Shown here piece after piece: positions 2,379-62,289 of a DNA stretch of 64,000 nucleotides. Position 1 is the stretch's first letter. Each line of letters begins with the position of its first letter. The notes under the pieces were generated by a model. It was given only the letters and a program-made list of their open reading frames with translations, made no database searches and was not told the origin of the DNA. Made by a program: the position numbers and the translations under genes. Source of the DNA: Malania oleifera (taxonomy: Eukaryota; Streptophyta; Magnoliopsida; Santalales; Ximeniaceae); contig NC_080423.1 of assembly GCF_029873635.1 (NCBI RefSeq), positions 101,928,991-101,992,990 on the forward strand, written 5' to 3'.

Positions 2379-4085
2379 TGTTGACCCTATGGATCATACC
2401 CTATTTTGATTATGACAAACACTGAGGTATTTAATGGCCATCTAGTTCATGTGTAGGTTTATATTAGCAAATACACTAATTGCACTGAAGTAAAGCTTGA
2501 AGACCTTATTTATGATTGTATTTAATTTCCATATTCATCATGGGTTTGTAATAGTAAATAGGGTCTGGCTTGTAATATTTGTATGCATCACCTGCATGGT
2601 ATGTGAGGTAAGCTCAAAATGAAAATGACCTTAGAAAGACTTTAGGGATTACCCTTCGGTTGACCGACACCGGATTTTTTGATGTCTTCAAAAAGACCTA
2701 GAAATGACCCTAAGACACTCACTCATGCATACATATGATTGATCATTTGATTTGGGTGATTGAATACTTGAAACAGGACCGAAATGCACAAAATGTGCAC
2801 ACTCAGTCGATCGGCACTTCATGTTCATTTTGCCCCTGGTTGACCGACCAAGGACCAGGTCAACTTGTTGACCACAGCTTGGTTGACCGAACTATTACAG
2901 TTCATTTGACCTCAATTGACCAAACCCCCCTGAAGTCAACTTTATTAACTTCCTGGTCGACCGAGCACTTTTTGAATACCATCAACCTGGTCGACCGACA
3001 GGCTCAGTTCAAATTAACCCTGGTCGACCAAACTTTGCAAGAATTGAAAAATCGCTTTCGGACTTATATGTCCGGTCGACCGAGACCACAATACATTTCA
3101 CGCCCAGTCGACCGAACCCCAAGAACTTGGGTCGACCAAACTTGTCCTGATCAACCGGTGCTCTCAGGTTGGACCTATTTTTTTACCACGGTTAACTCAT
3201 TTAAACAGGGTTAATTTAATTAAATAATATTAAAATTTTTCTAATTATTCCAACTATATCTTTAACAGTTATAATTCAGGGGAAGTCTATAAATTCCCCC
3301 TCATTTGGAATAATTAGTAGAACATTAGCAATCTTAATTACAAGAAATTCTTTGAAATTCCAAAATCTATAATACTCATTTCTTGAGCCTCCAACACTTA
3401 TTCTTACCAAATCTTACTACTCAAATATCTTTTGTAAGTGTGATTTAAGTGTTGTTGTTCCATAAGGATTGCTCTCGCAAGATTGTGTTTGTGTGAAATT
3501 ATTTTCTTTGAGAGCACATCCTCAAATGTTCTTAGGGGGCTTTATTAATAAATTTTTCCAAAGAGGACTTCGTTGGAGCTTCTATGTATTGCATCGACAT
3601 TTCAATATCTTGTGAAGTTCTTATTTGATTTTGGTTGCAAAAATCCTTTCAAATCATTTTCAAATATCTAGTGTATTTTATCTTGAAAAATCTTTGAAGA
3701 GATATTTGTTTATGTGGTGAAAATCTTTATTGGAATATTCATTGAGTAATATCATTTGTATATATATATATATCTTGAGCTTTATACATTGAGAAAATCT
3801 GCTGTTTGAGATATATGAAATTTGTCTGATATCTTTGTTTGAGCATTTAGATTGAATATATATTTTGTGATACAAAGATCATATTGGTTGCACTCTCACG
3901 CACTGATTACAACGATTGTAAATGATGCGCATGATTTAAATTTTCGCATATTATATTTATCTGCACATTTGGGATTGCATAGAAAGACTCTAAGTTGTGA
4001 TATTCTGCTAACATCTGTTTTAACTTAGGAATAAGTTTTAAAATTCTAATTCAAGCCCCCTCTTGGGAATACACCAAAGCTAACA
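2379..4085 (+). mobile_element. Solo LTR, family A (1.7 kb)
   Basis: Begins TGTTGACC and ends GCTAACA, the same termini as the minus-strand copy at 39175-41313, and the two share long stretches throughout. It contains an array of about 13 degenerate GTCGACCGA motifs (about 2655-3165), then a TATA-like sequence (CTATAAATT near 3287). No gag or pol is attached. The five bases on each side (gcaat, agtca) do not match, so the TSD is lost or one flank was rearranged. Confidence 0.75.
2655..3165 (+). repeat. Cluster of GTCGACCGA-type motifs in family-A LTR
   Basis: About 13 copies of a motif close to (T/C)GGTCGACCGA occur at irregular 15-50-base spacing, for example near 2657, 2837, 2880, 2953, 2988, 3020, 3073, 3105 and 3128. 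The core GTCGAC is palindromic. Variants are mostly C/T or G/A changes within CpG, as expected from methylation decay. The open frame across this stretch (2735-3214) is a by-product of the array. Confidence 0.8.
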
Positions 4086-5886
4086 AGTCAGCTAATCATC
4101 AATTGGAACATGAAATGATGGATCACACTCATAGCCCTTAAGCTAGGAAACACCAATTCTTCTGGGAGCCTGATGTGTCAGTATCTGAATACAACTGAGT
4201 TGCATACCAATAATGTCTGACACATGTCAGAAATAAATTAATTACTTTTTATTTTTGGACACAGCGAGATACTCCCAAACACATCATAACACAGCGATGA
4301 CACATCTGGAACACTCCTTGCAGTGAAAGGATGCAGTTTGTTGGGCCCTTTAACTCTGTTAACAAAAAAAACTAAGAAAACAAACAAACAAACATTTTTT
4401 AGGAAGAGCTTAGAGACCCAAAGAATCGAGAGACCTCTTCAGCATTGGTGGGTTAAAAGTTTAGACCTTGGAGCCCTAGCAAGACTGCAGAGTACCATTG
4501 AACTTCCCAGCCCCTGCTTCACTGGAGAAAAGATGACAAGGAGGAAGTTTGTTGGCTACTTGGCCTCCTTTCTTCTTCAGTTCAACTCTTCCAGCTTCAA
4601 GCCTTCAGCTCCTCGAGCCCAGCAGACATGAATAGCATGTCCATTGCTAGTTCTCCTCCCCTAAGTTCCCTCCCCCACCCCCCTTTCAAGGGGTTGCCAG
4701 TTCGCAACTCTTTGTTAATCACTTAATTTTTTTTAAAAAAATTTCTTGATGACTAATTTGCCAGCTTTTTTTGCTGATGGACTAATGTTCTCTAATATGA
4801 ATGTAACCTGTGATTGTTCGTCTGTGGTTTCACTACTTTGTAATTGTGCAATTGATAATTGTGCATAAATTATGCTATATTTCATTTTGAATTTAATTAC
4901 CTTAATATGTCCCTACCATGTTGCACCCACATTTTTCCAAAATTGCTGTATCACTATGTCGGTATCATAACCAAGTCCATGTTGGCATCAGTGCTATAAG
5001 CCCGCCCCTTAAGTTGGTCAAGATATTAAGAAACAAATTTTGGAAGACCATCATATGATATTCTATCATAACTTGGACATGAGGAAGAACACAGACTGAC
5101 ATCTTTTACATGCCTTGGAAATCTACGCTGCTAATGCGGTTAACAGTAACAGTGTCTCACATTCCAAATCTCAATACACCAATCTTTGGGCAAACTACAG
5201 AAGCATTTTAAATATGCAAGAGCTTTCACCTATGAACAACAGTACAGTACTTAAATCAAAATCAAAATAAAAATAAAAATTATGTCATTGATGTCAACCA
5301 ATCATGTGCCTTCCATACATGAATGATAGTTGTGTTGACACGACCTGCCAATACAGCACCCCTACCAAATCATTTGCATTGTTTCTTTCTTCTTCTTTTT
5401 TCCTTTTTTTTTTGTTTTTTTTTTTCAGGGGAATGCCTACTTGGCCATCTCAAGTTACATACTTTGTGCGGTCCCATAATGTACCAAACATCAAATCAGT
5501 TTTGATCTTACTAGCAACACAATCATTCAAGAAAGAATGAAATTATTTAATCTCCCTTTTCTGATAAGTTTTAATAGATTTACGTAAACATATGAAAGAA
5601 TTTAATAACAGCAGCAAATAGAAATAGAAGGAATAATCTTAGGAAAATAAAACCATTGTTATTGATAATGACTTGTCATGGAGTCCATCAGGTAACACGG
5701 ATCATTCCCTGCAAGGGTTCCTGCTTCATTCTGATGTTCTTCCTCAAAAATGATATGCAACCATCCTATATGTGCAGGAGGGAGGAAAAAGGAGTATAAA
5801 AATTGAGGAAAAAGAAGAATATAGGACTTACAAGTTACAAAGATTTGACATTCCACAGCAGAATTTTGAACCAGATTGTCTCATCG
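4086..5886. other. Intergenic / 3' flank of PPR gene
   Basis: AT-rich with homopolymer runs. A 102-codon plus-strand frame (4323-4631) has no recognisable domain and no splice context. The right end (about 5650-5886) is probably 3' UTR of the PPR gene on the minus strand. Nothing else can be supported. Confidence 0.4.
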
Positions 5887-21658: not shown

Positions 21659-24037
21659 TGTTGACTTTTTGAATCTGATCTCTGTTTCGATACTGACAAA
21701 GTATAAGTTTCTTATGTGTATATCTAGCATGTGAATAGATTCATTAATTTAACACACATATAAAGGAATGGAAATGCAAGCCTAAAGGACTTAAAGCCTA
21801 TACGGTCTGACGTATTCTATGAAAACTGAAAAGTAAAGAAAAAGAAGAAGACATCTATTTTAATTTGTATTGCATTTAGTTCTTATATTTGGTTTGTAAT
21901 AATGCAGGTCTTATATGATATGATTGCAAAGCTCAGAATGACCATAGACAAACCAAAGCTTAGGGTACCCAACACTTTCATGAAAAATTCTTTTCATAAA
22001 ACTAAAATCATATAAAAAAGATTTAAATCATTTTAGATCAAAATAGGGCTAAAAATTGCTTTTTTTTTTTAACTATCCTCGATCGACCAGCCTTCTCTAG
22101 TTTTAAAAGCCTCAGCTGACCGACCATGCCTTGAGGGCAAAATTGAAATTTTAATGACCTCAGTCGACCAGCCTATTTTATACATAAAGCCCTCAGCCAA
22201 TCGGCCTTCTTACTTGGGCCAAATCTACATGCCTCAGCCGACCGACCAAATTAGTTCAAAAAAGCCCTCAGCAGACCGATCCTCAAGAATCGGCAGACTG
22301 GTTTAAGCATCAGTCAATCGAACTTACGAAGGTTCAAAAAGTTGCCCAAGCCAGCCGACCGACCCTTTCCTTAGCCAATTGAACCCGTTTTAAAATTTGA
22401 AATTCTTGTGTGTGTTCAGCCGATCGACGCTAGCACCGGTTGACCGAACGTCTCGGGTTCTAGTTATTTTCCAGTGCTAATCACGTTTTATTTTTTAATT
22501 AAACAACTTAGAAAATACCGAGCGTGTCCCCAAACGATCATATTTTCAAAAACTCTATAAATACCCCTTCCATAAGCTAAATTATCAACTTTGATTTGTT
22601 AAAAACTTCTCTCAAATCTTTTGGGTTATTTTTTTAATCAAAGTTCCCCCAAACACATTTTATTATAAAAATTCTTTTTGGAGAAAAATTTTTTACATAC
22701 TCTCTTTCCTTTTATACATTTGAAAAATACTTTTGAAAGAGAGCATTCATTTTATTTAGGACATTTATTTTTAATCATCAATAGCATTTACTCTCACTTG
22801 TTCATTAGTTTTAAAAATCAATTTTTGAGAGTAAGCTTTGAGTGTTTCCCATATTATTTCTTTGATAAATATTTATTGGGAAAACTCTATGTAGCTTTTG
22901 AATCTTTGCACATCTATTAGAAGATTCAAATGCTCATACAGTATTTATTACACAAATATTTTTGAGCTTAAATCCTAGTTTCTCCAAACAATTTCTTTTT
23001 GCAAAATCTTTATTTGGAGAACATATGTATCACTTTCAGATTTTTAAAATGTTTTATTGCTCACTCCATATTTTAAATCAAAGTTCATATATTCTTATTT
23101 GTGCAAAAATCACTTTGAAAGCAAACACCCTAAGTTCTCCTGATTTTTATTGAAAAATATTTTTGGAGAAATATTTATTTGGATCTTTGAAGTGCTTATC
23201 ATATACATAATATTCAAGGATTACAAAATTATTTTGAGAAAATTACCCTACTCTACTAAATTTATTTCATATCATACTAGAGTGCATTTTTTAGTTTCAT
23301 GTGTACATCTCTGCTTTTTCTGAGAAGCATTTTATATGTACAAAAAATTGTTTTATGAACCGATTCGACTCATCCTACGAATTAAGCCAGGGAGTCTCTA
23401 TCCCGTAAGGGAGACCGATTTGGTTTAACCCAATAAATTGAACTGAGGTGTCTCCGCCCCGTAAGAGAGACCAGTTGGGCTTAGCCTGGTAATTGGGTTG
23501 GGGTATTTCTTGCCCTATAAGGAGAGGTTGTATTGGTTGTGGCTCAGCCCTGTGATTGAGTTGGGGTTTACCTCGCCCCATAAGGAGAGGTTGTAATGGT
23601 ATATACTCCACCCATTAAATGAGTAAGGTTAGTGGAATCCTTGAGAGGTATGCCCATGGCGGGGACGTAGGTAGTATTGACCGAACCTCGATAACAAATA
23701 TGTGTGTGTCTCTCTCTATCTCATTTACTTTTTACACTTTAATTTTCATATGTGTATGTTTATTTACTAATAGAACTATTTTGCATGCACACATACTTTA
23801 TTTAAATGAGATATGTTACACGTGTATGTTTGTATTTATTGCTTAACCACTTTACATACATACTTCAAATTTATATGGGATATATGTATGCAAATATTTA
23901 GTTTGTTGATAATGTCATAGTTGTTTTAAATATTTGCATACTTGATTATCTGTGGTGAATCGGCACAAAGCTTAAATCGGCTAAAAAAATTTTAAATACC
24001 CAATTCACCCTCTCTTGGAATCACATCATTCCTAACA
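21659..24037 (+). repeat. 5' LTR of the LARD-like element (2379 bp)
   Basis: TGTTGAC to CTAACA. Contains a cluster of CGACCGA-type motifs (about 22078-22445), then CTCTATAAATACCCC (about 22553), a good TATA box. A later set of three GTAAGGGAGA-type repeats (about 23400-23600) is also present in the 3' LTR. Many differences from the 3' LTR are transitions, so the insertion is old. Confidence 0.85.
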
Positions 24038-24039
24038 AT

Positions 24040-24051
24040 TGGTATCAGAGC
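24040..24051 (+). promoter_or_regulatory. Primer binding site, tRNA-Met(i)
   Basis: TGGTATCAGAGC, two bases after the 5' LTR, is an exact match to the standard plant initiator-Met primer site. Confidence 0.9.
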
Positions 24052-24119
24052 CTGATTACAATAAGTTTAACCGCTATTTGCATAAAGATTGCAATAACTC
24101 ATATTTGGTGTATCCCTGT

Positions 24120-24286
24120 TGTAGAAACCGGAAAAAAAATAAAATTTAAAATAAAATAAAATAAATAAATAAATAAAATAAAATAATAAAATAAAATAAA
24201 TTAATTAAATTAACAAATAAAAGGAATAGTATGATAAGGAAATATATATATATATATATATATATAAGTTAAAAGTAATTATGATA

Positions 24287-24327
<41 letters not shown>

Positions 24328-25111
24328 TGCAAGCTTCTTCAAGAAGTTTTGTTTCAAATTCATCAAATCCAATTTGAATTGGATTCCATTTCCTGTGCCA
24401 GTGCACTCTCTCTCTCTCCTCTCTCTCTCTCGCTCTCTTCGATTTCGGGTCAATTTTACACCAAATCGATAAACTGAAACCACCACGACGCTCTTGGCGA
24501 AGTTCTCTGCAAATATGCCGTAACGGATCGTTAGAGAAAGCAATTTGGAAATCATTCCTAAGTTGAGGTAAGACTTTTTAAGTCAAATTTGAAGTTGTGA
24601 CAATTGAGAAAAGTGTTATACGCGTTGAAATATTGAAGTTTAATACTGAGAGTTTTCGTTTCCAGGGGTGTTGATTGGGAACGTTGGGAATCATTTCTAA
24701 GTTGAGGTAAGATTTTTTAAGCCAAATTTGACTTTGTAGCTGTTATAGAAAATGTTGTACATACGAAAATACTAAAAATTTTCGGTTTCAGGGTATTGGT
24801 CAGGAAATCTTACGGGGGTTAGACTATATTGTTTTGGGGGCTTTCTCAGTAGTCAGGTAAGGGGATAAACTAAGCTAGTTTTGTTTTGAGAAAATGCATG
24901 TATATATATGTAGCATTTGGTTTCAGGAAAAATAAATATATTTATATATATGATTTATATTTGGAAAATACTGTTTAAATGATGATATGTTGAATACGTG
25001 GAAAATTTGTTCAGTGTGGCATGAGTATAAAAATGTTGTGAAATATTGTTTTCTAGGAATGGGGATGATATGGATTTCTATGATGGAAAACCGCGTATGG
25101 GCCGAGATATT

Positions 25112-25143
<32 letters not shown>

Positions 25144-26329
25144 ATTTTCCGGCGTACGGGCCGTGATATGTGGATATGTCTGCCGACATACGGGCCGGGC
25201 TATGTGACTGTGATTTGTCGGCGTACGGGTCGTGCTATGTTAATGTGATTTACCAGCGTACAGGCTGTGCTATGATTTGCCGGCGTACGGGCCGAGCTAT
25301 GATAAAATGTGTAATTCCGGCGTACGGGCCGATGATTTTCATGAAATATGTATATGTGAAAAATGATATGATTGATTTGATAATTATTGATATGAGATAT
25401 CCATGTATCATGATTTTAGTATATGTATATGATATCAGAACCTGATTGGTTTGGTCTAGACTAGCACTTGCACGATACCGTTGCTATGTGTCTATGATCT
25501 TCGTAATCATGATATTTGTGTTAATGCCGGTGTACGGAGTGGTGTGAGATTGGATGGCCGATGTGGTTATTTTCAAGAAGTGTGTTGTTATCGCCCCTGG
25601 TGTACGAACCAGTCTGGGTAGACCCATCGGACCTACAAACTACTGTTTGACTTAGCAATGGTAGGCCAACCATTGTCAGGTCCCGCCTTCGGGTCACACA
25701 ATCCAGTCATGTGGGGGTAATACATGACAACAACCAGCTAACCTACCAGGAATGTTTTATGTTATTATTATTATTATATGAGATGAAATATGATTATGAA
25801 AAATGCAGTATGTTCTGCCAAGTTTTGATGGTATATGTATGTTTTCCTAGATTTGATAAATAGTACTGAACATGTTATGTATGATATATGTTGAACACAA
25901 AATACTCATGTTACCACACACTAGTATTATTTTATTTCCCTTACTGAGAGGTGTCTCACCCCTAAATTTTATTAACTTTTCAGGAACCCCAGATAAGAGA
26001 TGGGAAAAGTCCCGCTGAACTAGTGCTGTGTATCTGCCCTTTTGAAGGGTAAGTTTTGTAGGGACGGTTAGATTTTTGGGGAAATGTCTCTAGGTCTTAT
26101 TTTTGGGATGTATATATGGAAATGTTGTGGACTATAGCAACTCTGGTTTATCGTAATATATGGTATTGAGATGTATATTATTATATGTTTCCTGCTGCTA
26201 GGGCTTCTGCTATATGTGCTGATATATCTTTGGTACCCACGGGTCCAGGTGGATGGTGACTTGTTGAGCTGGAATGTATGACGTTGATGTTATAAAAAAA
26301 AAATTATAGAAATTGAGCAGGTCGTGACA
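24120..26329 (+). mobile_element. Solo LTR nested in the LARD interior (2210 bp)
   Basis: Begins TGTAGAAACCGG and ends GGTCGTGACA, flanked by a perfect 5-base TSD, CCTGT (24115-24119 and 26330-26334). LTR ends of this kind are typical of chromodomain Ty3/gypsy elements, and the terminal form is shared with the LTRs at 31699 and 53239. It carries (AT)n runs (24243-24266, 24288-24322) and a GC-rich repeat block (25091-25335). Confidence 0.9.
25091..25335 (+). repeat. Direct repeats CCGGCGTACGGGCCG in the solo LTR
   Basis: Seven copies of a unit close to CCGGCGTACGGGCCGTGCTATG, near 25091, 25149, 25180, 25217, 25251, 25279 and 25316, spaced about 28-58 bases. Two weaker copies follow near 25525 and 25596. 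They are GC-rich within an AT-rich LTR. Confidence 0.8.
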
Positions 26330-26334
26330 CCTGT

Positions 26335-27240
26335 TTTGAGGGTCAAACCTTTGCAAATCCTCCACTGTTTTCATCATACAGATTTTACCATTTGATTACT
26401 AAAAATGATTTTTTGTAAAATCAATTTATTAGAGATTTTGGAAAGTGCTTGGCACAGGAGATCATATCCTATAGAAAAATAATTTTAAATGCATAGTTTC
26501 CCAACATTTAGAATAAAGTGAAAAAGCATGACATGGTTTTTTAATGCATATCATTTGACAGCCATGCATATTTTATATTGTGTCTTAGTTACTAATGATT
26601 TTAAAAGATCATGTTTTATACTAATACTAGGGAAATTTTGGAAACAATGAGCCGTATGGAAAAACCGAGAGAGAAGAGAACACCACTCCAAGCTTAAACG
26701 TTTAAAAAGGAGTAAAACGTAAAGGTATATTTGTTCTCCTTCTAATTCATTGAATAATTCATGTTATGATTCACATGATATATTTTGTATTATTTTTTTT
26801 GTGAATCATATGATATTTCTAGTTATAACCGCATGACATCTTATGAGGTTCATTTCAAAAAAATTTTATTTATACTCATAAGATTCTTATTAGAATATAT
26901 TATATAAGGGGTTATAATGCTGTAAACGCATAAATAGTATTTTGAGCTTAAAATTCTAAATTTTAGTATACACTATTATTATACTAAGATTATTAGAAAA
27001 ACAAGCCAATATGAATATCCAAATTGATAAAACTCAATCTATTTCGCCTAAGGTATATATATCATTATGATTGGTTTGTGTTTGAATATATTTGCTATAG
27101 CACGTTTATGTGAATCCCCTTCACATGGACAAAAATATTTTTAACTATTAAATAATTTTTAATTCTATATATATGCTTAAACTTCAAAATTCTTGAATAT
27201 AACATATTTTGTCAATCACACAGATTTGAAGTTTAGGGAA

Positions 27241-27290
<50 letters not shown>

Positions 27291-29754
27291 TATAACCCTA
27301 AATTCATAATGGTGCTTAAAGCTTATCCCCTTATCAGAAAATATTAGCTTAAATTGAAGAATATAATGTCAAATAATTGCCTCTTGAAAATTAGAAACTT
27401 TTGGCTAAAAGATTTAATGTTTGGGCTACATAATTAAGGGGGAGCAGTCTTGTTTAAATTCATCCAATAGTTAATTAATTGTATTGTGCTAAATTTTGGA
27501 ATATCTTATTAATTCATCTACATTGGATGACTTGGGAGCTGAATGCTAACTATCCATCCTCCGCTTAAAGTTCAATTATATTTTATGGATAATTTATTTG
27601 AACTGAACGCTTACTGTCTATTCTTTTCTTAATGGTAATTTCATTTAATGGACAAATTTATTTATTTTTGATTAGCTATTCTGATCTGCATGCTTGAACT
27701 GAATGTCACCTGCATGGCTGATGCAATGATATGAATTGCATGCTCGTAGTTATTTTTATGTTATTTGTATGGAACGTCATCTGCAAGACTGTTGCATAAC
27801 CTTGCGAATTGCATGCTGATAGTAAACTAGGTTGTTGCATGCTTAAATTGAGTTACTTATTGTAAACAACCAAGTTTTTGGTGAATGGATTTTGGGAAAT
27901 ATTATATTTATAGACGGCATGCTGCCAAAATTTCGTTAAATTTTTCCAAAAACATTAGTCCATAAACCATGTGCCAAAATAGTTATAATACGTTGCATGC
28001 TAGAACTCATTTTAAAGGATGATTGTTTGTTCAATGAATATCTAATCTTCATCCTTATCTATAATTGCATGCATGAGAACATAGGGAAACTATACTGGTT
28101 GCACATTAGAAATGAATAAATTTATATCTAGTATAGATCTTCTGAAAAGAAAGAGTGTTTATGTTGATTGGTATACTTAGTGGAATTAACCCTTGATTAG
28201 TATAAGCAGTTGAGCTCTCTTTCCTAGGATGCTGAATAATCAAATAGGTTAGTACATATCAAATCCAAAATACTATATAAATTTAAAACATGTACACATT
28301 TTGTTATCCTAGGGGGAACTAGTTCATGGACACCATTTGGTGCAACTCCTTGGGGTATGTGCTTTCACTTGAGATCTAAAGGGTAAAACATCATTCTTGT
28401 AATCAAACATCACATGTTTTGATGATGGTCCATTGACTAGGGCAATTGCTTGACTTATGGGGAGTTCTCATTTTGCACGCACTCATTATGTATATTGAGT
28501 TGTGCCACCTTTATATTGAACCTCTATTGCATAATCTTGAGTATAGCCTTGACTGGCTATCGTGCTTTTAAATTGAAATGCAATATGCCATGCTATATAT
28601 GTGTTGAATGAGTAATATTTTTTGCATGTTGAAATCTTTTGAAAGGATGAATATATGACAAGTGCGTGTAAATGTGCATCATCCTAGAGCTAAATTCCAA
28701 TATGTATGCATGCAAATATACAGGGGAGCTTAAGCCCCACTCTTAGGAAAAATCAATAAGAGCTTAATGCCTATAGTCTCTTGCATACTAAGCTTTGTTA
28801 TGAAGGATGAACATATGTTGAATATGCTTAAATGAAATTCATCCTTGTGCGTAAATGTACTTTTGTGTGCTTGAGAGTTTACTGGAGAGTTTAAGCCCTA
28901 TCCTTGAGAAAAGGATTAAAAGAATCTGTCCCATGGACTCACATTATTATTGTTTCTACTTTTTGAGTCTGAAGCTCTTCTAGGTACCCTAAACATCATA
29001 TTTTGTCTTCATTGAATCATATTTGATATGAATTATTCTTGGTACGCATGAACACCTTGCACATGACTTAATGTTAAATTTCTAGTGCATGTGTATTCTA
29101 GGAATTGTTTTCCTGGTGAAACACAAATTGCTTATCGTATATCCAGTAAGATCTATTAAGAATGAAAAAATATTTCTTATACTATAATAATGAATTTTCA
29201 CAACTGGTATCAGTATAAGTGATTAATTTTTATCTAAGCTTGCTTTGAAATCTAAAGGGGGAGTTTTTGTAAAAAATTTCATTTCTTATGTTCTCCCTAC
29301 TCTAGGCTTAGATCAGAAAGTTATTGTGGCTCGTATGCTTAACAAAATGAATTTCTTTTTACCTATGGTAAATTTTTAACTCATAGCATCTAAGCTCGTA
29401 TTCAAATTCATAGGGGGGGTTTTTGAAACTACATTTCTCTTTTTGTGCTCACCCACATTTGTAGCTTAGATCTGTTTCGAATTTGTTGTGGCATGTGCTT
29501 AAATTATAATGATCTTATTGAAAATTCTTAAATGAAAATATGTTTGCTTTGCCACAAAATCTTTGAGTTTGCCATATGTTCCCTATCCTTTCAAAATCTT
29601 CTAACATCTTTGGGATCCATATGGTTGTTTTTCTGGTTATACTTTGGAATGCTCTTAAATGCCAAATTAAGGAAACATTGCTTGCTTGAACCTTAAATGT
29701 TAAAGTTTCTTTTTTCAGCAAGCATAATCCTCAGCATTTATTGAAAATCGTAAG

Positions 29755-29792
<38 letters not shown>

Positions 29793-30382
29793 TAAAAGTA
29801 AGAAATGAACTTATATAGAATATATTTTATCTCTAGTTTATGTGCTTAAATGCTTTCATGACTTATGTTATCTCTGTGTTAAAATTTTACATCATGAAAT
29901 TTCAAAATATTCTTAAAGGGTGTTGTGTAACTGGTTCATTGAATATATACGGTCAGTTATACTGTTCTTATGAAAATAAATGCCAAAAAGAGAGAGAGTT
30001 TTCTAAAACAAATCAAAATTTTATTTTTTTTTCAAAAATGGGAGTTCTCTTTAGCTAACTCTTATTTTAAATGATCAAATTGTTTTATACTTAGTTTGGC
30101 CCTTTTGCTGATGACAAAAGGGGAAGAATTTTATGAGCAAAATGATAAACAACTTTATGACCAAAAAAAATAAAGCGAAATATTTTAGGGCAAATGATTT
30201 TAAATGAGGTAAATATCTAAGCTTTACAGTGCTTTTATACGAAAATTAAATGCATGATTATTTGTAATATATTATTTCCTTATATGCTTGTGTTATATTG
30301 TCTATACTTTTAAGTTATGCGTATTGTTAGGGTGAGCCTTTTCAGACTGTACCCATTTTGCTCTGGTGCATTTATCATCATC
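26335..30382 (+). other. Coding-free interior of the LARD-like element
   Basis: About 4 kb of AT-rich sequence with (AT)n runs at 27247-27289 and 29758-29789 and no frame over about 75 codons. Nothing resembling gag, protease or polymerase motifs was found on either strand. Confidence 0.7.
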
Positions 30383-30396
30383 AAAAAGGGGGAGAT
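30383..30396 (+). promoter_or_regulatory. Polypurine tract of the LARD-like element
   Basis: AAAAAGGGGGAGA immediately before the TGTTGAC start of the 3' LTR, the expected plus-strand primer. Confidence 0.85.
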
Positions 30397-32706
30397 TGTT
30401 GACTTTTTGAGTCCGATCCTGTTTTGATATTAACAAATAATAAGTTTCTTATGTGTGTATTTAACATGTGAATGGGTCTATTAATTTAACACACACATAA
30501 GGGAACAAAAAATAGAAGCATGAAAGACTTAAAGCCTATATGATCTAGCGTATTCCATGAAGACTGAAGAGCAAAGAAAAAGAAGAAGATAACTATTTTA
30601 ATTTGTATTGCATTTAGTTTTTATATTTGGTCTTTAATAATGCAGGTCTTATATGATATGATTGCAAGGTTCAGAATGACCATAAACAAAACATAGGGTA
30701 TCTGAAACTTTCATGAAAAATCTTTTTCATAAAAACTAAAATCATACAAAAAGGATTTAAATCATTTTGGATCAAAATAGGTCTAAAAATTGTGTTTTTT
30801 TTTAACCGTCCTCAGTTGACTGGCCTTCTCTAGTTTTAAAAGCCTCAGCTGACTGACCATGCCTTGAGGACAAAATTAAAATTTTAATGACCTCGGTCGA
30901 ACGGCCTGTTTTATACATAAAGCCCTTAGCCGACTAACCTTTGTACTTGGGCCAGATCTACATGCCTCGGCTGACCGACCAAATTAGTTCAAAAAGGCCC
31001 TCAGCCAACCGATTCTCAAGAATTGGCAGACCAGCTTAAGCATCAACTGACTGAACCTACAAAGGTTCGGAAAGTCGCCTAGGCTAGCTGACTGGCCCTT
31101 TCCTCGGCCAATCTAACCCATTTTGAAATTTTAAATTCTTATGTGTGTTAGCCGACTGGTGCTAGCATCAGTTGATCTAACCTCTCGGATTTTGGTTATT
31201 TTCCAGCACTAATCATATTTAATTTTTTAATTAAACAACTTGAAAAATGCCGAGTGTGTCCCCAAACGATCATATTTTTAAAAACTCTATAAATACCCCT
31301 TCCATAAGCTAAATTATCAACTTTGATTAGCCAAAAATTTCTCTCAAATCTTTTGGGCTATTTTTTTTAATCAAAGTTCCCCCAAACACATTTTATTGCA
31401 AAAATTCTTTATAGGGCAAATTTTTTTTCATACTCTTTCCTATTCTCTTACCTTTTATATATTTGAAATAATACTTTTGAAAGAGAGCATTCATTTTATT
31501 TATGACATTTATTTTTAATCATCAATAGCATTTACTCTCACTTATTCTTTAGTTCAGAAAATCAATTTTTAAGAGTAAGCTTTGAGTGTTTCCCATATTA
31601 TTTCTTTGATAAATATTTATTGGAAAAACTCTACGTAGCTTTTGAATTTTTGCACATCTATTGGAAGATTCAAATGCTCATATAGTATTTATTGCACATG
31701 TAACGCCTCGACCCTCTATGTGGGCCCGGAGTACTACGAATTCATTCATTTACCTACTAACCAACATTCTAATATCATTTATGCAGCGAAAATCATAAAT
31801 ATACTCTTCCAACAATATAATACCAGAGTTTTCTATACCTATTTACATTCCATAAAAACCATCCATCTCTCAGAACACTTCAAAACATAAAGCATAAAAC
31901 CTAAAACATAAACTTTATACATCCCAAAATATCATAAAAATTTTACCCTTTTTCTAAAAAATGTTATAGTAGCTCGAGCTCTCCAAGCTCAATCTCGTGG
32001 TGGTCTTGAAAAAGATAAGTTCATATTCAGGTAAAACACATCTCAATAAGGGAAAAAACCATATATTAAAACAGTGTGGCCAACATGAGATTTGTATATA
32101 ACCTGTTATTCATCATTTGCAAATCATTAACATTATTTTTGAAATCATTTTCTGATCCTATTCAAACACACGTAAGGTATTTTACCCACGAGATTACCTA
32201 AGGATAGGGGTGATTACCTATCCACACAAGTAGCACCCCTTTGCTCTGATACATTAGGCAACCCAAAGGTCATAGTTAAAGCATACCAAGGCACTCACCT
32301 TACTCAGTAAGCCCTCAAGTGATATATTAATCTCATACTCACACAATTAATACAAAAGTTTACCAACGAAGGCCCCAAGAATAGGGAAATCTACCTGCTC
32401 ATACAAATAGTTTCTCTCTGCCCTAGCATGTTATGCAGTCTAATGCCACATTTGATACTTACCAGGGCACTCACCTTTCTCAGCAAGCCCTCGAGTGAAA
32501 AGTTTGCCCCACTCAAACGTAACACGTTCTACTAGCATACATACTGATAATACCATAATACATTATTCTGCCCATTGTTATCCTATAATTTTTAACTGTT
32601 TATTTTCTTAGCTTAAACATTTCATAGCATTTCACTTTACGTGACCCATTCCATTTCACATTGTTCGCATTTCATATTTCCTTATCATTCTCATTGTCAT
32701 TTAATT

Positions 32707-32896: not shown

Positions 32897-33035
32897 GTTA
32901 CATTAACAAACACATGTAACATATTCCATATAACATTTCATTTTGGTACATTTCTTGCATAACATGCATCTCATACATATAACATAGTCCCATGCAAGGT
33001 TCAATTTACTCATGACACACTATTTAACAGTAAAA

Positions 33036-33038
<3 letters not shown>

Positions 33039-33082
<44 letters not shown>
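33039..33082. repeat. (AT)n microsatellite
   Basis: About 22 AT units. A second run of similar length is at 33955-33998, in the same solo LTR. Confidence 0.95.
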
Positions 33083-33084
<2 letters not shown>

Positions 33085-33952: not shown

Positions 33953-34000
<48 letters not shown>

Positions 34001-34881
34001 TATTTCAATAGGTTTTTTTTCCTTATCATACTATTCATTTTACTTGTTAATTTAATTAATTAATTTAATAATATTTAATTAATTAATTGATTAATAATTT
34101 TAATTAATTTTTTTTCGGGTTATTACAACACAAATATTTTTGAGCTTAAATCCTAGTTTCTCCAAACAATTTCTTTTTGCAAAATCTTTATTGGAGAACA
34201 TATGTATCACATTCAGATCCTTGAAACGTTTTATTGCTCACTCCATATGTTAATCAAAAATCATATATTCTTATTTGTGCAAAAATCACTTTGAAAGCAA
34301 ACGCCCTAGGTTCTCCTGATTTTTATTGAAAAATATTTTTGGAGAAATATTTATTTGGATCTTTGAAGTGCTTATCATATATATAATATTCAAGGATTAC
34401 AAAATTATTTTGAGAAAATTACCTAACTCTACTAAACTTATTTCATATCATACTAGAGTACATTTTTGAGTTTCATGTCTACATCCCTACTTATTTTGAG
34501 ATACATTTTATATGTACAAAAAATTGTTTTATGTATCGGTTCGGCTCATCCCGTGAATTGAGTTAGGGAGTCTCTGCCTCGTAAGGGAGACCGATTTGGT
34601 TTAGCTAGGTAAATTGAACTAGAGTGTCTCTGCTCCGTAAGGGAGACCAGTTGAGCTGAGCCTAGTAATTGAGTTGGGTATTCCTCACCCCGTAAGGAGA
34701 AGTTGTATTGGTTGCAGCTCAGCTCTATAATTGAGCTGGGGTTTACCTCGCCCCATAAGGAGAGATTGTAACGGTTTATGCTCCACCTGTTAAGTGAGCA
34801 GGGTTAGTGAAATCCTTGGGAGGTATGCCCAAGGCGGGGACGTACGCAGTAGTGGCCAAACTTCAATAACAAATCTATGTG

Positions 34882-34924
<43 letters not shown>

Positions 34925-35260
34925 ATCTCATTTACTTTCTACACGTTAATTTCCATATGTGTATGCTTGTTTATTCACTGATAAAACTAGTTTGCATGCA
35001 CACATACTTTATTTAAATGGGATATGTCACACGTGTATGTTTGTATTTATTGCTTAACCATTTTACTTCTATGCTTCAAATTTAAATGGGATATATAGTG
35101 GTGCTTGTATGCAAATATTTAATTTGTTGAGAATGTCATAGTTGTTTTAAATATTTGCATACTTGATTATTTGTAGTGAATTGGTACAAAGCTTAAATCG
35201 GCCAAAAAAATTTTAAATACCTAATTCACCCCCTTTTTTGGGATCATACCATTCCTAACA

Positions 35261-35625: not shown

Positions 35626-36454
35626 TTGCTAGCAATAGTAGTAGTACTAATGCATGGATGGTGCTGGTGGTATCATGTACTTTTGTTTAGTACTATGGAG
35701 CAGTGTTAATGTTTTTTTTTGGGGGAGGGGGGGGGGGGAGCGGCACGTGGTTGTTAATAACTGGATGTTATTGGTTAAAATGTCACTACGTTTTTTTTTT
35801 TTTCTCTCTTTTTAGGTAATGCCGGCCGGGCATAAGCCCGACTAATCCCACACCAAGAGCAGCTAGCCCACCACATTCCTGGATATAAACGCGGATGTGA
35901 ACATGCTTAGTCCCTCATTGTAGGCCATGTGGCAAGCCAAAAAAAAAAAATAGGTCCACCATATTGGATCACCATAATTCTCCTATTGTTCTTTCTTGAC
36001 CAATCCAATCACGCCAAATATGTATGTAAACTTTATGTAATTCTACGTAGACCCTAGTAACTACTTGCCATGATTTCATTGACCTAATTCTTTGGTTTTT
36101 TTGGCAAGCAAGAGGATGGGAATGTGCCCTACACCACTCTTCCTCTCTATGTGTCGTATGAGTCTTAATGCTCACGAACTCGTAATGAATATCCTCGCTC
36201 TCACCCAATTATAAATGGAATTAAATGGATCAATCAAGTGTAATAGAATGAAAAATTATGATAAAAATGCTAATATAATAAAGTATGATTAAAAAAATTA
36301 CATTAAGATATCATTTCAACCACTTATGCAAAAATATTTTTTTTTAAAATTATTGAATCTAAATACTAATAAAAAGTGTTGAACTAGAAAAGTGCTAAAA
36401 GTTATAAGTGATAGTTGGTTATTTTTAAAATAAATAATATTTGGATACTTATTT
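35626..36454. other. Spacer with no supported gene
   Basis: Contains a G-run (about 35720-35738), a CACGTGG word and an unremarkable 79-codon minus frame (35969-36208). No domain or repeat was recognised. Confidence 0.4.
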
Positions 36455-37007
36455 TGTTGTGAAAATTGAATGTGCAACGGAATAAAACGATCTTACAAAC
36501 ACAACAACCAACAGTGAAATATACAGAACAACAATCACGCAAATTATAATGAAAGCAATAACAATGACAAAAAGAATTAAGTGGTTCGACAATGCCTACA
36601 TCCATGGGAGCAATGGGCAATGTAATTCTTACTATCTTGTGTCCAACGACTTGAACATTCAAAGTTACAACATGTACAACGTATATATAATCCTTTTGGA
36701 GGTTTTCCCCTCGAAACCCAAACTATCCAATGTCCCAAAATTCAAAACTAGCGCTGGGAACCCAAGCCAAACTGTTGACGCTTTCAGACATATTGTCAAT
36801 AGTTTTAATATTGAGAGCAAACAATCGAAGCAACGACACTAGAATTGTTGATTGTTTCTTATCATCTTGACACAACTGTCGACAATTTCAAGGAAACTAT
36901 TGACAGTTTGCTCCTGCAAACTTGCTATAAATCACAACTGTTGTTTTCTACCACGTTTTCTCATTGTACATGCATTCCACTCAATATATGAGTCACATAT
37001 CATAACA
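36455..37007 (-). repeat. 3' LTR of copia element 1 (553 bp)
   Basis: On the minus strand it starts TGTTATGATATG directly after a polypurine stretch (AAAGTGGAGAT, 37008-37018) and ends CACAACA. It matches 41895 to about 42275. Several GTCGACAATTTC / TTGACAGTTT words lie upstream of a TATATATA word (about 36680). Confidence 0.78.
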
Positions 37008-39174: not shown

Positions 39175-41313
39175 TGTTAGCTTTACCGTGATCCCGAGGG
39201 GGGGGTGAATTGGTATTTTTAAAATTGAATCCCTAGGTAAATATTATAACACTAGTATGTTCACAACCCTATGATCAATCTAGTGCAAGTAATGTAAATA
39301 TACCAGAATTCAAATAAAGCAATTTAATCAATGCCACATACACTAGAAAATAGTAAAATAAGAGTGACACACAGAGATGTTATCGAAGTTCGGCCAATTG
39401 CCTACGTCCCCACCTTGGCTAACAAGTACAAGGATTACCACTATAACTTGCTCACTTAAAAGGGTGGAGCGGCACCTATACAAACCAGGTCAATTAGCAC
39501 AGGGCTGACCTCAACCTTTACATACAATCCTTACCGAACTGGATTACCGCTCCCTCAGGCCACACCTGGAAACACTCAAATTTTACAATCAAATGGTACA
39601 GACAAAAGTGTTTTCACGTAAAGCAGATATGTACCCAAATGCATTCAATCAAATACACCACAAATGATTTAATACGTAAGCTCAGTGTGGTCTAAATAAT
39701 TCAACTCTCAAATGTATCTTCTATCAGTGTAATAAGTGCGTGAGAGTATCAACAAACAATCTTTGTATCTCAAGATTTTCAATCAACAGATTCACACAAA
39801 GATGTCAAGCAAGTTTCAAATGTATCAATTAGTAGGATATATCATTCACGTATATAGAATACATGCTTGGTTTGCAAAAGATATGTAATCTTTGTATTGA
39901 GCAAATAATATGTGAGTGAATAACTATTGCACAAAGACTAATATACAAAACACAAATATCTTCTCACAAGTATATTAACTATAAATCACATAAGATATTT
40001 GAGTAAGTTTTGAAAACATTTTGTAATCCAAAAATCAAATACAAACTTCCTAAGTTATAGTAACGAAAATGCAACACTCGGAAGTTCAACACAAGTCTTC
40101 TTAGGATAGGCTTATGAGCAAAGCCCCCTAAGAATACTTAGGTTTTGCTTTTGTAAAAATCGATTCAATCTCACAACAATGAGAGAGCAAAACTCTTTGT
40201 ACAAACACTCAATACACTTACAGAGGATATGGAAACTTGAAGAAGATAAGTTTGAGTGGTTTGAGTGAGAGTATGAGCAATAGGAATAGAAGAGAGTATT
40301 TTTACTTAAGAGAGAATTTTTTATTTTGTTTTGCTAATCAGATCTCTAATTTTCCCAAATGAAGGGGTATATATAGAGACCCCAAGAATTATAACTGTTG
40401 GGGACAAGTTTGGGATTATTAGAAAAGATTAATGATGTTTTTATTATTTTAACCCTGTTTTAAAAAATTAACCACGATAAAAAAAATTCAGGGCAACCCG
40501 AGAGAACCGGTCGACCAGAATATTCTCAGTCGACCGAAGTTCATATGGCTCGGTCCACAAGGCCATTTTTGAACTTCAGGATCGGTCGATCGGGAGAGGC
40601 GATTTTCTCAATTTGCGCGGTTCAGTTGACCAGGGATATTTGAACTAGGTGATTTGGTCGACCAGACCATTGGGACATCTCTCAAGGACCCTTGGTCGAC
40701 TAGGTTGGTGCAGTTCAAAATCCTCTCAGTCGACCAGGAAGGCAAAATGTTGACTTCTAGGTGATTTGGTCGACCGGGGTCAAATGAACTATAATGGTTC
40801 GGTCGACCGGGCTGTGGTTAATCAGTTGACCCAGACCGGATTCGGTCAACCAGGGTAGAATGAACTACATGGGCCGGTCGACCGAAAGTGCACAAAGTGT
40901 ACATTTCGGTCCTATTTTGATTAACAAAAACCCTATTCAATGTGCCTAACATATATGAGTGCAAATTTGAGTGTCCTAGGATCATTTTTAGGTCCTTTTT
41001 GAAGACACCGAAAAAATTCAGTGTCGGTCGACCGAAGTCATTTGCATTATGAGCTTACATATTTGACCATACAGGTGATGTGTGTGATTATTACATACAA
41101 AAAATCCTAATTACTATTACAGACCCTTTACATGAATAAAATATATTGCAACATAAGAAATTGGGTCTTCAATAGAAATTTGGTCTTCAAGCTTCACTCT
41201 TTCCATGTGCATTTGATCTGTCAATTTAAGTTCGTGCACAAAGCCTCAAGCACCTATTAGATACAATGAGTATTTGTCATAATCAAAATCGGGAGTGACC
41301 TATAAGGTCAACA
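39175..41313 (-). mobile_element. Solo LTR, family A, inserted in copia element 1 gag (2139 bp)
   Basis: On the minus strand it runs TGTTGACC to GCTAACA, with a perfect TSD (AAAAC on the plus strand, 39170-39174 and 41314-41318). It is homologous to 2379-4085. The GTCGACCG array lies at about 40498-41035, followed (minus strand) by CTCTATATATACCCC near 40370. It splits the copia gag cleanly. Confidence 0.92.
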
Positions 41314-53428: not shown

Positions 53429-53461
<33 letters not shown>

Positions 53462-55028: not shown

Positions 55029-55472
55029 GATCCACTTCGGCAGATTTGCAAAGAAATTTTCCAAGAGTGTCGTGGAGGCCTCGGATCGTCGAATCGGTGA
55101 GAAACGGAGTCAGAATCAAAGAGAGAAGGGGAGAGGGATGCTTTATAGAGGGAGAGGGTCTTCTTGCAAAATTTTCTATAGAAAAATTCGGGTTTTAGCT
55201 ATTTATAATCCCAGATTCGTTGATGAAACACGTCATCTTATCGACAAGTCCATGAAGAAAGTTCGTCGACAAACTTGAACACCTCATTGATGAATTTCAG
55301 ACTGCCAAAAGCCCCCTCTCGGTATCTTCTCGTCAATGAGACACATCCTCGTCGACGAGACCTTCATGTATTCTTGTCGACGAATCTCCTGTGTTCGTCA
55401 ACGAGACCCTGCTTAATTTTCTTCTTTTCTTTCCTCCTATTTTAAATTATGAAAATTATCTAGGTCTCTACA

Positions 55473-60223: not shown

Positions 60224-62289
60224 TGTAACGACCCAAAAATTACTCAATATTTTTTTTACACATAAATTACTCTGATACCCATGCTATAGCCTCTCAGACC
60301 TCAGATGGGCACTAAGGTATTCCAGTACATAATAGACACACCTATGCAGCGGAAAACATAATATCATACATCCATATATATATACACACAATACTAGAAT
60401 TCAGTGTTTCCAAACCATAATTACATTTTCATATCTCACACCAGTACCATCTACCCAAAAAAAAAAAAAAACACAACCCTCTAAACACACTTACCCTATA
60501 AGCAGGGCAACCAAGAAGTCACTCTATCTGCGAGCTTGATCTGCTCGCCTAGCTAGTTCACCTGAAAAATGTTAGAGTAATGGGATGAGACGACACTCAG
60601 TAAGTGGAAATATGCTATTACTTGTGTGTGGGGACCAAGTTGCATATCTATTATAAATACATCTGAAACTGTATAAGCTAGTAAATTAGTACAAAGTATA
60701 TCTTTCATTCGTCGTAGTTTAAAATATAACTGTATCATCTCATTTCTACTTTTCATACTTCTAATATCATATTATATTTATCAAATGCTATAAATCTGTA
60801 AACATATACATAACTGTGTTTTTCCCTGGAAATCTGTATGTCATGATTTAACCCCTCATGACAAGGTTGTGCAACTTGTAGGCTGGACTTTACTCTAGTT
60901 GGCCTACCAGGTAAGTCACTGTACTCTACCCTTCCTCAGTCAGGACAAACTGCATCCTCTCTTAAGTACGAAACAGGACTACTACCTCGTCAAACCAGGT
61001 CCCTTAACCCAGAGAACTAGGGAGACTGCAACCACTCCGGGCGTGGTTGACAGTACCCACACGCTATCTGAGATATATGGTTGCACTATGATCTGTAAAT
61101 AGCAACGATATCGTGCTCTGTAAACTGTATTTGTCTGTAATATTTCATTAGGGATCTGATACTGTATACATATATACTACTACTATAATTACCTTACTAT
61201 TTTCATCATGTTTCCAAAATAACCATAACACTGTAATTTTGCACTCGAAATACTGTAACATCTGAATAACATAACTGTAGCAACTGATTGCTATAACTGT
61301 ATATCTCACTATATAATTTGACTATATAAGATAAGTGTTATGGTTTTGGGAAACATGGCATTCTATAATTACTTTAATATACTAATCTGAATAAAATCTA
61401 TAATACTTGTATGATAAATATCTGTCTATATCTGTATATACTGTAAATCATGATATGTTGAAAAAAAAAATTATATAAATTCTATATCAGGTAAATATCT
61501 ACTTAGGCCACACAAACATTAAACTCATATTCTGTAAAATTGGATAATAACTAGTATATATATACATACATACAATTTCTGATAACTTTACTAAAATTCC
61601 TAGCATAGCATATTTTCCTTACTTGGTTTCTGAAAAAGCCCCCTACTGTGTCTGGTCCTACACCCGCAAGGTTCCCCACTCAACACCCTGAAAACAACAT
61701 CTAATAGAACAAAATATCAGTATTTCTTTGTATACTACATTTCTTATAATTGTGGGAAAGGCAAATACTAAATAAAATGTTTTACCCTAAAATTAGGATG
61801 GAGTTCAAGTTACTTTCACCAATGATCCACTTCAGCAGATTTGCAAAGAAATTTTCCAAGAGTGTCATGGTGGCCTCGGATCATCGAATCGGTGAGAAAC
61901 GGAGTCGGAATCAAAGAGTGAAGGGGAGAGGGATGTTTTAAAGAGAGAGAGAGGGTCTTCTTGCAAAATTTTCTATAGAAAAATCCGGGTTTTAGCTATT
62001 TATAATCCCAGACTCGTCGACGAGAGGGATTCGTTGACGAGACATGTCATCTCGTCGATGAGTCCATGAAGAAAGTTCGTCGATGAACTTGAAGCCCTCG
62101 TTGACGAATTTCAGACTGCCAAAAGCCCCCTCTCGGTATCTTCTCGTCAATGAGACACAACCTCGTCGACGAGACCTTCATGTATTCTTGTCGACGAATC
62201 TCATGTGTTCGTCGATGAGACCCTGCTTAATTTTCTTCTTTTCTTTCCTCCTCCTATTTTAAATTATGAAAATTATCTGGGTCTCTACA
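60224..62289 (-). repeat. Middle LTR of the gypsy array (2066 bp), uninterrupted
   Basis: TGTAACGACCCAAAAATTAC to GGGTCTCTACA on the plus strand. The minus strand starts with U3, which carries CTCGTCGACGAG palindromes (about 62222-62013), then TTATAAATAGC (about 61995), a likely TATA box. It gives the empty-site reference for both nested solo LTRs in the left LTR. Confidence 0.88.

What the first reader, a model, noticed from the sequence alone, without database searches (positions are those of the whole stretch)
2379..62289. GTCGAC-centred palindrome arrays upstream of TATA boxes in several unrelated LTR families
Clusters of short, degenerate, GTCGAC-core palindromes occur in the LTR of family A (GGTCGACCGA, 2655-3165; minus copy 40498-41035), the LARD (CAGCCGACCGACC-like, 22078-22445 and 30805-31190) and the gypsy array (CTCGTCGACGAG, 62013-62222 and 55215-55410). 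A weaker set is in copia element 1 (GTCGACAATTTC, about 36770-36910). In each the cluster sits in the probable U3, followed within roughly 50-200 bases by a TATA-like sequence on the element's own strand. The flanking words differ among families, so this looks like convergence on a common core and not shared ancestry. It may be a transcription-factor array or a silencing/methylation target.
Basis: partly seen in the sequence, partly recalled or inferred. Interest (0 to 1): 0.72.

Follow-up and report, generated by a model that had tools for sequence, protein, structure and literature searches.

The report
Sirevirus-type palindrome boxes in LTR promoters
Several virus-like jumping genes in this stretch of plant DNA carry, just before their start-of-transcription signal, rows of short mirror-image DNA words built on GTCGAC; in two of the four families this is an already described hallmark of plant Sireviruses, while similar rows in unrelated elements hint that different jumping genes may court the same plant regulator.

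Summary
The arrays are real. GTCGAC occurs 29 times against 3.3 +/- 2.0 in shuffles, and the densest palindrome arrays of the window are GTCGAC-centred. They lie in U3, upstream of a TATA box. 'Several unrelated families' is only partly right: family A and the 'LARD' are both Sirevirus-type. The LARD has the exact Sirevirus PBS junction and PPT/attachment 12-mer, and one family-A LTR shares a homologous block with it (E 3e-13). Family A's box, CGGTCGACCG, is letter for letter the 'repeated motif' printed for a grapevine Sirevirus in 2010 (PMC2829016, Table 3). What remains: a Ty3/gypsy chromovirus-like LTR carries nine TCGTCGACGA boxes ending 9 bp before TATAAATAG, and a classic copia LTR five borderline AACTGTCGACAGTT-like boxes. 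Four library searches listed no report of such arrays in Ty3 LTRs by title or abstract start. Box spacing tends to multiples of 10.5 bp (pooled P 0.0003, or 0.004 for any period; not in Ty3), and boxes are more conserved than spacers between the two family-A LTRs (p 0.01). Best reading: cis-regulatory arrays for a dimeric host protein, decaying at CpG after insertion.

The parts
2379..4085 (+). Family A copy A1: Sirevirus-type solo LTR (1707 bp, TGTTGACC...GCTAACA); no target-site duplication seen
   Evidence: polyC signal TTCAAGCCCCCTC ahead of the LTR end
2657..3157 (+). A1 array: 11 boxes of CGGTCGACCG (up to 3 mismatches), LTR positions 279-779
3288..3295 (+). A1 TATA box (TATAAATT)
39175..41313 (-). 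Family A copy A2: Sirevirus-type solo LTR (2139 bp) with 5-bp target-site duplication GTTTT, nested in the gag region of copia 1; polyC signal TTCACCCCCCCC at 39198-39209
40508..41034 (-). A2 array: 14 boxes of CGGTCGACCG (up to 3 mismatches), LTR positions 280-806
40368..40375 (-). A2 TATA box (TATATATA)
21659..24037 (+). 'LARD' 5' LTR; really a Sirevirus-type element (SV2); LTR/PBS junction CA/ATTGG/TATCAGAGC at 24036-24051
22079..22447 (+). SV2 5' array: 10 boxes of TCGGTCGACCGA (up to 4 mismatches), variants of TCAGCCGACCGA; TATA at 22556
24038..30396 (+). SV2 internal region; PPT octamer AGGGGGAG at 27437, 29256 and 30387, the last followed by AT/TG; no coding domain found
30397..35260 (+). 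SV2 3' LTR, interrupted at about 31699-34127 by another LTR-like insertion; imperfect target-site duplication CAGTT/CGGTT
30812..31179 (+). SV2 3' array: 7 boxes of TCGGTCGACCGA (up to 4 mismatches); no exact GTCGAC; TATA at 31288
60224..62289 (-). Ty3/gypsy chromovirus-like LTR (copy B), TGTAGAGACCC...GGTCGTTACA, preceded on its strand by a pol end and a purine-rich tract
62014..62218 (-). Ty3 array: 9 boxes of TCGTCGACGA (up to 2 mismatches), LTR positions 72-276; TATAAATAG starts at 62004
55217..55404 (-). Same array in the second Ty3 LTR copy (8 boxes, up to 3 mismatches; TATA at 55207); homologous to copy B, not independent
36454..37007 (-). copia 1 3' LTR (classic copia; end at 36454 approximate)
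36770..36908 (-). copia 1 borderline array: 5 sites within 4 mismatches of the 14-mer AATTGTCGACAATT (whole-LTR scan winner AACTGTCGACAGTT); TATA at 36689; the other LTR reads AATTGTCGACGGTT where this copy reads AAGCGTCAACAGTT

Best explanation
These are cis-regulatory box arrays of LTR promoters. In family A and the 'LARD' they are the Sirevirus repeated motif (box CGGTCGACCG, CGG-CCG signature, and a degenerate relative of it). A Ty3 chromovirus-like family and, weakly, a classic copia carry arrays of the same build with the same GTCGAC centre but other flanks. Most likely mechanism: each palindrome is one site for a homodimeric (or two-fold symmetric) host DNA-binding protein. Many sites, often set on the same face of the helix, recruit it upstream of TATA and drive, or make inducible, transcription of the element. 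After insertion the CpG at the centre of each box is methylated and decays to TG or CA, which erodes the sites. Shown here: the arrays, their position, their palindromy, the Sirevirus hallmarks, the excess of change at CpG. Supported but not proven: spacing in multiples of about 10.5 bp (all but Ty3), and higher conservation of boxes than spacers between two independently inserted family-A LTRs. Inferred: methylation, the protein, its dimeric binding and the activating role.
For: Sirevirus identity of the LARD: exact CAATTGGTATCAGAGC at 24036, AGGGGGAG+AT/TG at 30387, three PPT octamers in 6,359 bp of internal DNA and none on the other strand; polyC signals in A1, A2 and, shorter, SV2, against the definitions seen. 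Published Vitis RM = CGGTCGACCG, 12 copies, 10 in the 3' LTR; RMs start 200-400 bp into the LTR and extend 300-500 bp; here 279-779 and 280-806. Arrays beat shuffles (exceptions in the observation check). Spacing at 10.5 bp: A1 P 0.0095, A2 0.018, SV2 0.017, copia 1 <0.001 (n = 4); A2+Ty3B+SV2+copia 1 pooled n = 33, P 0.0003, and 0.004 allowing any period from 8 to 13. A1 against A2: boxes 27 of 134 positions changed, spacers 113 of 352 (Fisher p 0.0099; non-CpG positions alone 15 of 82 against 104 of 335, p 0.021). In the LTR pairs of SV2 and Ty3, which diverged after insertion, boxes are not better conserved at non-CpG positions (12 of 64 against 23 of 208; 6 of 65 against 9 of 216), as expected if selection acted only on active elements. 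Change at CpG against other positions: 34 of 76 against 126 of 1208 (SV2, odds ratio 7.0), 12 of 56 against 16 of 388 (Ty3, odds ratio 6.3).
Against: The Ty3 array alone shows no helical phasing (P 0.43). Allowing any period, single families are weak: A1 0.034, A2 0.092 (its best period is 8.0, not 10.5), SV2 0.155, Ty3B 0.84, copia 1 0.002 on four distances. A1 and A2 are homologous, so their phasing is not independent. Boxes were chosen by likeness to the consensus, which can bias the conservation test, and p 0.01 is uncorrected. No binding protein is known to me for the GTCGAC centre; Bousios et al. could not name a single factor either. Half-sites that I recall explain only the Sirevirus arrays: RCCGAC is over-represented in SV2 (5 and 3, 0 of 300 shuffles each) and A1 (3, 6 of 300), not in A2 (1, 133 of 300), and absent from Ty3 and copia 1; TTGACY is over-represented in A1 (8, 0 of 300) and A2 (5, 1 of 300), less so in SV2 5' (2, 8 of 300), not in SV2 3' (1, 122 of 300), and absent from Ty3 and copia 1. 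RNA of three of the four arrays folded is more stable than shuffles (z -4.05, -6.68, -4.33), which fits the hairpin rival as well.
Confidence: 0.6

Rival explanations
1. The palindromes matter as nucleic-acid structure: hairpins in read-through RNA (or cruciforms in DNA) feed small-RNA production, and the arrays are hotspots of host silencing.
For: Folding z-scores of -4.05 (A1), -6.68 (A2) and -4.33 (Ty3) against shuffles, element strand only. Maize Sirevirus palindrome regions are described as sRNA mapping hotspots (passages of PMC10760457 and PMC5311732, which cite Bousios et al. 2016; that paper itself is not held).
Against: The SV2 5' array folds no better than shuffles (z 0.04). Any set of inverted words folds well, so this is no test of function. 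It does not explain 10.5-bp spacing or a shared centre. CpG change is not higher in the array region than in the rest of the LTR (SV2 20 of 44 against 14 of 32).
Confidence: 0.2
2. The shared GTCGAC centre across lineages is coincidence: palindromic arrays are common in U3 and CpG-centred words stand out; only the Sirevirus arrays are established repeated motifs. (Not exclusive of the best explanation.)
For: Published Sirevirus RMs have different centres (GACGTC in Usier, ATCGAT in Tnd-1, one or more intervening bases in others). [quoted passage not shown] Only two independent strong arrays exist in the window, so the match is one observation, and the finding was picked because of the match. 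copia 1 is borderline.
Against: Shuffled LTRs and controls gave GTCGAC-centred top words in 12 of 1440 cases, and in 4 and 3 of 200 for copia 1, yet Ty3 and copia 1 both hit it.
Confidence: 0.45
3. The arrays are one mobile or shared repeat that spread between families by recombination or template switching.
For: Nesting is common here (A2 within copia 1, an LTR-like insert within the SV2 3' LTR).
Against: No BLAST hit below E 0.05 between Ty3 or copia 1 LTRs and the Sirevirus-type LTRs; box flanks differ, TRF finds no tandem unit there.
Confidence: 0.03

Closest known systems
Sirevirus LTR repeated motif (RM), Bousios et al. 2010, PMC2829016 (sections 9, 11, 13 and passages read)
   Same: Family A box is identical to the printed Vitis RM CGGTCGACCG; number, place in the upper LTR, TATA near mid-LTR, CpG richness, polyC signal; SV2 box is a TCGGTCGACCGA-like word with the half-site GACCG (5 in the 5' array, 0 of 300 shuffles).
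   [quoted passage not shown] The A2 array runs about 527 bp, slightly over the 300-500 given. The SV2 internal region has no RM copies above chance (1 and 0 hits) and no coding domain was found.
Maize Opie/Ji (PREM-2) Sirevirus palindromes CACCGGAC...GTCCGGTG, sRNA hotspots (PMC10760457 and PMC5311732, passages)
   Different: Other centre; small-RNA evidence exists there and could not be tested here.
Stress-responsive LTR boxes (Tnt1 box I, passage of PMC2829016; HSE of ONSEN and DREB/CBF sites, passages of PMC11656987)
   Same: Factor sites in LTR promoters; symmetry is noted for Tnt1 box I.
   Different: For ONSEN and DREB/CBF a factor is named; here none is identified and no expression was tested.

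Membership tests
Sirevirus (SV2, the 'LARD') | 5' LTR/PBS junction CA/ATTGG/TATCAGAGC | tested here: met
   Exact at 24036-24051, the only such site in the window; definition
Sirevirus (SV2, the 'LARD') | PPT AGGGGGAG followed by AT/TG attachment site | tested here: met
   30387-30398; definition
Sirevirus (SV2, the 'LARD') | Multiple PPT copies near the 3' LTR (83% within 0.5 kb) | tested here: inconclusive
   Two further octamers at 27437 and 29256, none on the other strand, but 3.0 and 1.1 kb from the 3' LTR
Sirevirus (SV2, the 'LARD') | gag-pol of the Sirevirus RT clade | tested here: inconclusive
   No coding domain found: tblastn of 6 window retroelement pieces gave only E 0.13 and 0.29; Pfam on 3 of 7 pieces of 75 aa or more gave none; non-autonomous element likely
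Sirevirus (family A) | Palindromic RM with CGG-CCG signature, at least 8 copies, starting 200-400 bp into the LTR | tested here: met
   CGGTCGACCG, 10 sites within 2 mismatches in each copy, from LTR positions 279 and 280; definition
Sirevirus (family A) | PolyC integrase signal about 21 bp from the LTR end | tested here: met
   TTCAAGCCCCCTCTTGGGA... and TTCACCCCCCCCTCGGGA..., about 17-25 bp from the end depending on where the signal is taken to stop
Sirevirus (family A) | PBS junction, PPT, RT clade | not testable with these tools
   Both copies are solo LTRs
Sirevirus RM (Ty3 array) | CGG-CCG signature in the palindrome | tested here: not met
   Box TCGTCGACGA has no CGG-CCG; built like an RM, is not one. 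(The published Tnd-1 RM also lacks it.)
Ty3 chromovirus (array-bearing gypsy element) | Ty3 RT and a chromodomain after integrase | tested here: inconclusive
   RVT_1 46.8 bits in the internal region; SH3_Tf2-1 52.8 bits and Chromo 20.6 bits against a cut-off of 25.1 at the pol end next to copy B; the matching piece next to copy A gave no family; no tree was made. A Tekay-like label would rest on a recalled pol-end motif (ATTTCGAGGACGAA)

The most novel reading that the evidence does not exclude
Three LTR-retrotransposon lineages of one plant genome (Sirevirus, Ty3 chromovirus, classic copia) have independently built U3 arrays on the same GTCGAC palindrome because one host dimeric DNA-binding protein, or protein family, reads that core and tolerates different flanks. 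The core would then be a common key to LTR promoters, and DNA methylation of its central CpG the matching lock.
Probability: 0.18. Interest if true: 0.72.

Novelty: new variant of a known kind. Interest (0 to 1): 0.37.

Why it matters
If only the Sirevirus part is real, this is a further example of a known motif, useful because it reclassifies a 'LARD' as a Sirevirus-type, probably non-autonomous element and shows the RM printed for a grapevine Sirevirus in this plant, whose species I do not know. If the Ty3 and copia arrays prove to share a reader with it, the open question of what binds Sirevirus repeated motifs becomes directly testable: one probe set (CGGTCGACCG, CTCGTCGACGAG, AACTGTCGACAGTT, methylated and not) could fish out the factor, and the spread of the core across lineages would show convergent capture of one host regulator by unrelated retrotransposons.

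Tried and rejected
Rejected: one shared inserted repeat (no BLAST hit below E 0.05 between Ty3 or copia 1 LTRs and the Sirevirus-type LTRs; no tandem unit). Rejected: W-box, DRE, ARF-type or TGACG sites as the common denominator; none is enriched in all arrays (these site names are recalled, not from a call). Considered and left as a note: CpG decay of GGTCGACC yields GGTTGACC, a W-box word, so A1's TTGACY excess may be a product of decay.

Led nowhere: a scan of viral contigs for the Sirevirus PBS 16-mer gave 14 loci, none with a tblastn hit to the window's copia RT piece, so no outside relatives were obtained; a text search for motif words found 280 papers, and the 30 listed concern other matters by title; 'GTCGAC' with DAP-seq gave one paper where it is a cloning site in primers. 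RM copies in the SV2 internal region are not above chance. The 10-mer scan did not detect the SV2 5' array, and copia 1 failed with 10- and 12-mers; the word length was lengthened afterwards, so the 12- and 14-mer results for these two carry a multiple-look cost. Phasing was first run with one SV2 box left out and repeated with every box of the arrays (left out: three lone hits far from the arrays, A2 1843, Ty3B 1572, SV2 1749; distances over 80 bp, one each in A1 and A2; and the SV2 3' and Ty3A arrays, which are homologous copies).

Full report
WHAT IS THERE. The window looks like plant DNA: it holds a PPR-protein ORF and a CRAL-TRIO-domain ORF (Pfam) amid LTR retrotransposons. GTCGAC occurs 29 times against 3.26 expected from dinucleotide shuffles (0 of 100 reach 29) and is the most enriched of the 64 palindromic hexamers relative to base composition. 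By place: family A 15 (6 in A1, 9 in A2), Ty3 LTR pair 6, copia 1 LTRs 2, LARD 1, elsewhere 5.

UNBIASED TESTS. To avoid asking only about GTCGAC I scanned for any palindromic word. Over 423 sliding 600-bp windows (10-mers with 4 or more G/C, up to 2 mismatches) 11 windows hold 7 or more boxes, all GTCGAC-centred, all in family A or the Ty3 LTRs. Against shuffles of each LTR, 10-mers: A1 and A2 CGGTCGACCG 10 sites each (0 of 200), Ty3B TCGTCGACGA 9 (1 of 200), part of Ty3A 6 (0 of 200), LARD 5' not significant (88 of 200), LARD 3' part 4 of 200 (GTCAGCTGAC), copia 1 3' and 5' LTR not significant (140 and 198 of 200). With 12-mers and a composition-corrected score: A1, A2, LARD 5' (TCGGTCGACCGA, 9), Ty3B (CTCGTCGACGAG, 9) 0 of 120 each, though A1's winner is GGTCGGCCGACC; LARD 3' 1 of 120 (TCAGCCGGCTGA); copia 1 3' 9 of 120 with another word, 5' 113 of 120; five controls 5, 7, 45, 98 and 98 of 120. 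Only 12 of 1440 shuffles had a GTCGAC-centred winner. With 14-mers the copia 1 3' LTR gives AACTGTCGACAGTT, 5 sites, 5 of 200 over the LTR and 0 of 200 over U3; its other LTR reads AATTGTCGACGGTT where this copy reads AAGCGTCAACAGTT, which includes a CpG-decay difference at the centre. I call copia 1 borderline. A 14-mer scan of the LARD 5' array was significant with 4 mismatches (0 of 60), not with 3 (50 of 60).

WHAT THE ELEMENTS ARE. Family A is two solo LTRs: A1 2379-4085 (no target-site duplication seen) and A2 41313-39175 on the minus strand, flanked by GTTTT on both sides, inside the gag region of copia 1. The 'LARD' (SV2) has LTRs 21659-24037 and 30397-35260, the latter interrupted by another LTR-like insertion. 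Its 5' junction reads CA/ATTGG/TATCAGAGC and its 3' junction AGGGGGAG/AT/TG, with two more AGGGGGAG octamers inside. These are Sirevirus hallmarks as defined in Bousios et al. 2010 (passages). Both families have a C-rich signal near the LTR end, short (CCC) in the SV2 5' LTR. A2 and SV2 LTRs share a 76%-identical block of 132 bp (E 2.9e-13); A1, 66% identical to A2 over 1,512 bp, shows only E 0.017 with SV2. So A and the LARD are both Sirevirus-type, not unrelated. No coding domain was found in SV2 (Pfam saw 3 of 7 pieces of 75 aa or more). The array-bearing Ty3 element is chromovirus-like: RVT_1 in its internal region; SH3_Tf2-1 and a sub-threshold Chromo hit at the pol end beside copy B, none in the piece beside copy A. 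copia 1 has copia gag, Pol_BBD and a sub-threshold RVT_2 match.

ALREADY KNOWN PART. Bousios et al. 2010 (PMC2829016; sections 9, 11, 13 read) describe a Sirevirus repeated motif: palindromic, 8 to 32 copies per element, most in the upper half of the LTR, upstream of TATA, forming CpG islands. Table 3 gives the Vitis motif as CGGTCGACCG. That is the family A box, and family A matches the described start (279 and 280 of the LTR; arrays end at 779 and 806). CpG observed/expected is 0.66-1.51 in the Sirevirus and Ty3 arrays against 0.30-0.48 in the rest of the same LTRs, and 0.98 against 0.70 in copia 1. [quoted passage not shown]

NOT YET EXPLAINED PART. The Ty3 LTR has nine TCGTCGACGA boxes at LTR positions 72-276 and TATAAATAG at 286. 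It lacks the CGG-CCG signature, so I do not file it as a Sirevirus RM, but it has the same build and the same centre. The 2010 paper compared Sireviruses with classic copia elements and called the RM Sirevirus-specific among these. My searches for palindrome arrays in Ty3/chromovirus LTR promoters listed no paper that reports them by title or by the start of the abstract; beyond papers cited elsewhere here I read passages of PMC11963269 and PMC3414828 only. That is a limited search.

HOW IT MAY WORK. (1) Box-to-box distances favour multiples of about 10.5 bp: pooled A2+Ty3B+SV2+copia 1, n = 33, P 0.0003 (0.004 allowing any period 8-13); singly A1 0.0095, A2 0.018, SV2 0.017, copia 1 <0.001 with n = 4, Ty3B 0.43; with any period allowed 0.034, 0.092, 0.155, 0.002 and 0.84. 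This favours a protein on one face of DNA, except in Ty3. (2) Between A1 and A2, boxes changed at 27 of 134 positions and spacers at 113 of 352 (p 0.0099); in the LTR pairs of SV2 and Ty3 boxes are not better conserved and nominally change more (SV2 12 of 64 against 23 of 208, p 0.13; Ty3 6 of 65 against 9 of 216, p 0.12; non-CpG positions). That is the contrast expected of sites that matter while the element is active. (3) CpG positions change far more often than others (34 of 76 against 126 of 1208 in SV2; 12 of 56 against 16 of 388 in Ty3), 44 of those 46 changes being transitions, which indicates methylation; the arrays are not special in this. (4) RNA folding beats shuffles for A1, A2 and Ty3 but not SV2 (copia 1 not folded), so a hairpin/small-RNA role as argued for maize Sireviruses (passages) stays possible. 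I favour a factor-binding array; the factor is unknown.

VERDICT. Half of it is a known Sirevirus feature; the other half, a same-centred array in a Ty3 LTR and a borderline one in a classic copia, is a modest new variant whose meaning needs the source genome, which could not be reached.

Noticed in passing
24038-30396: SV2 internal region has Sirevirus PBS and PPTs but no coding domain was found: probably a non-autonomous Sirevirus-type element under the label LARD.
   Followed up: partly
25140-25331: Imperfect 35-bp repeat, 5.7 copies (68% matches), with a GGCGTACGGGCC-like core, inside the SV2 internal region.
   Followed up: no
31699-34127: LTR-like insertion (TGTAACGCC...TTATTACA) in the SV2 3' LTR, carrying a 33-bp repeat of 4.9 copies at 32736-32896.
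   Followed up: no
49972-64000: Ty3 elements in tandem (pol end, LTR, internal region, LTR), the lower LTR broken by further insertions.
   Followed up: partly
2657-3157: CpG decay of GGTCGACC boxes makes GGTTGACC/GGTCAACC, i.e. W-box words (name recalled); TTGACY is 8 against 1.2 expected in A1, so decaying Sirevirus LTRs may seed such sites near genes.
   Followed up: partly
47050-47301: Weak Chromo match (17.4 bits, below cut-off) on the minus strand beside a plus-strand Ty3 gag/pol, suggesting another nested element.
   Followed up: no
42379-42478: 33-bp tandem repeat, 3 copies, 91% matches.
   Followed up: no
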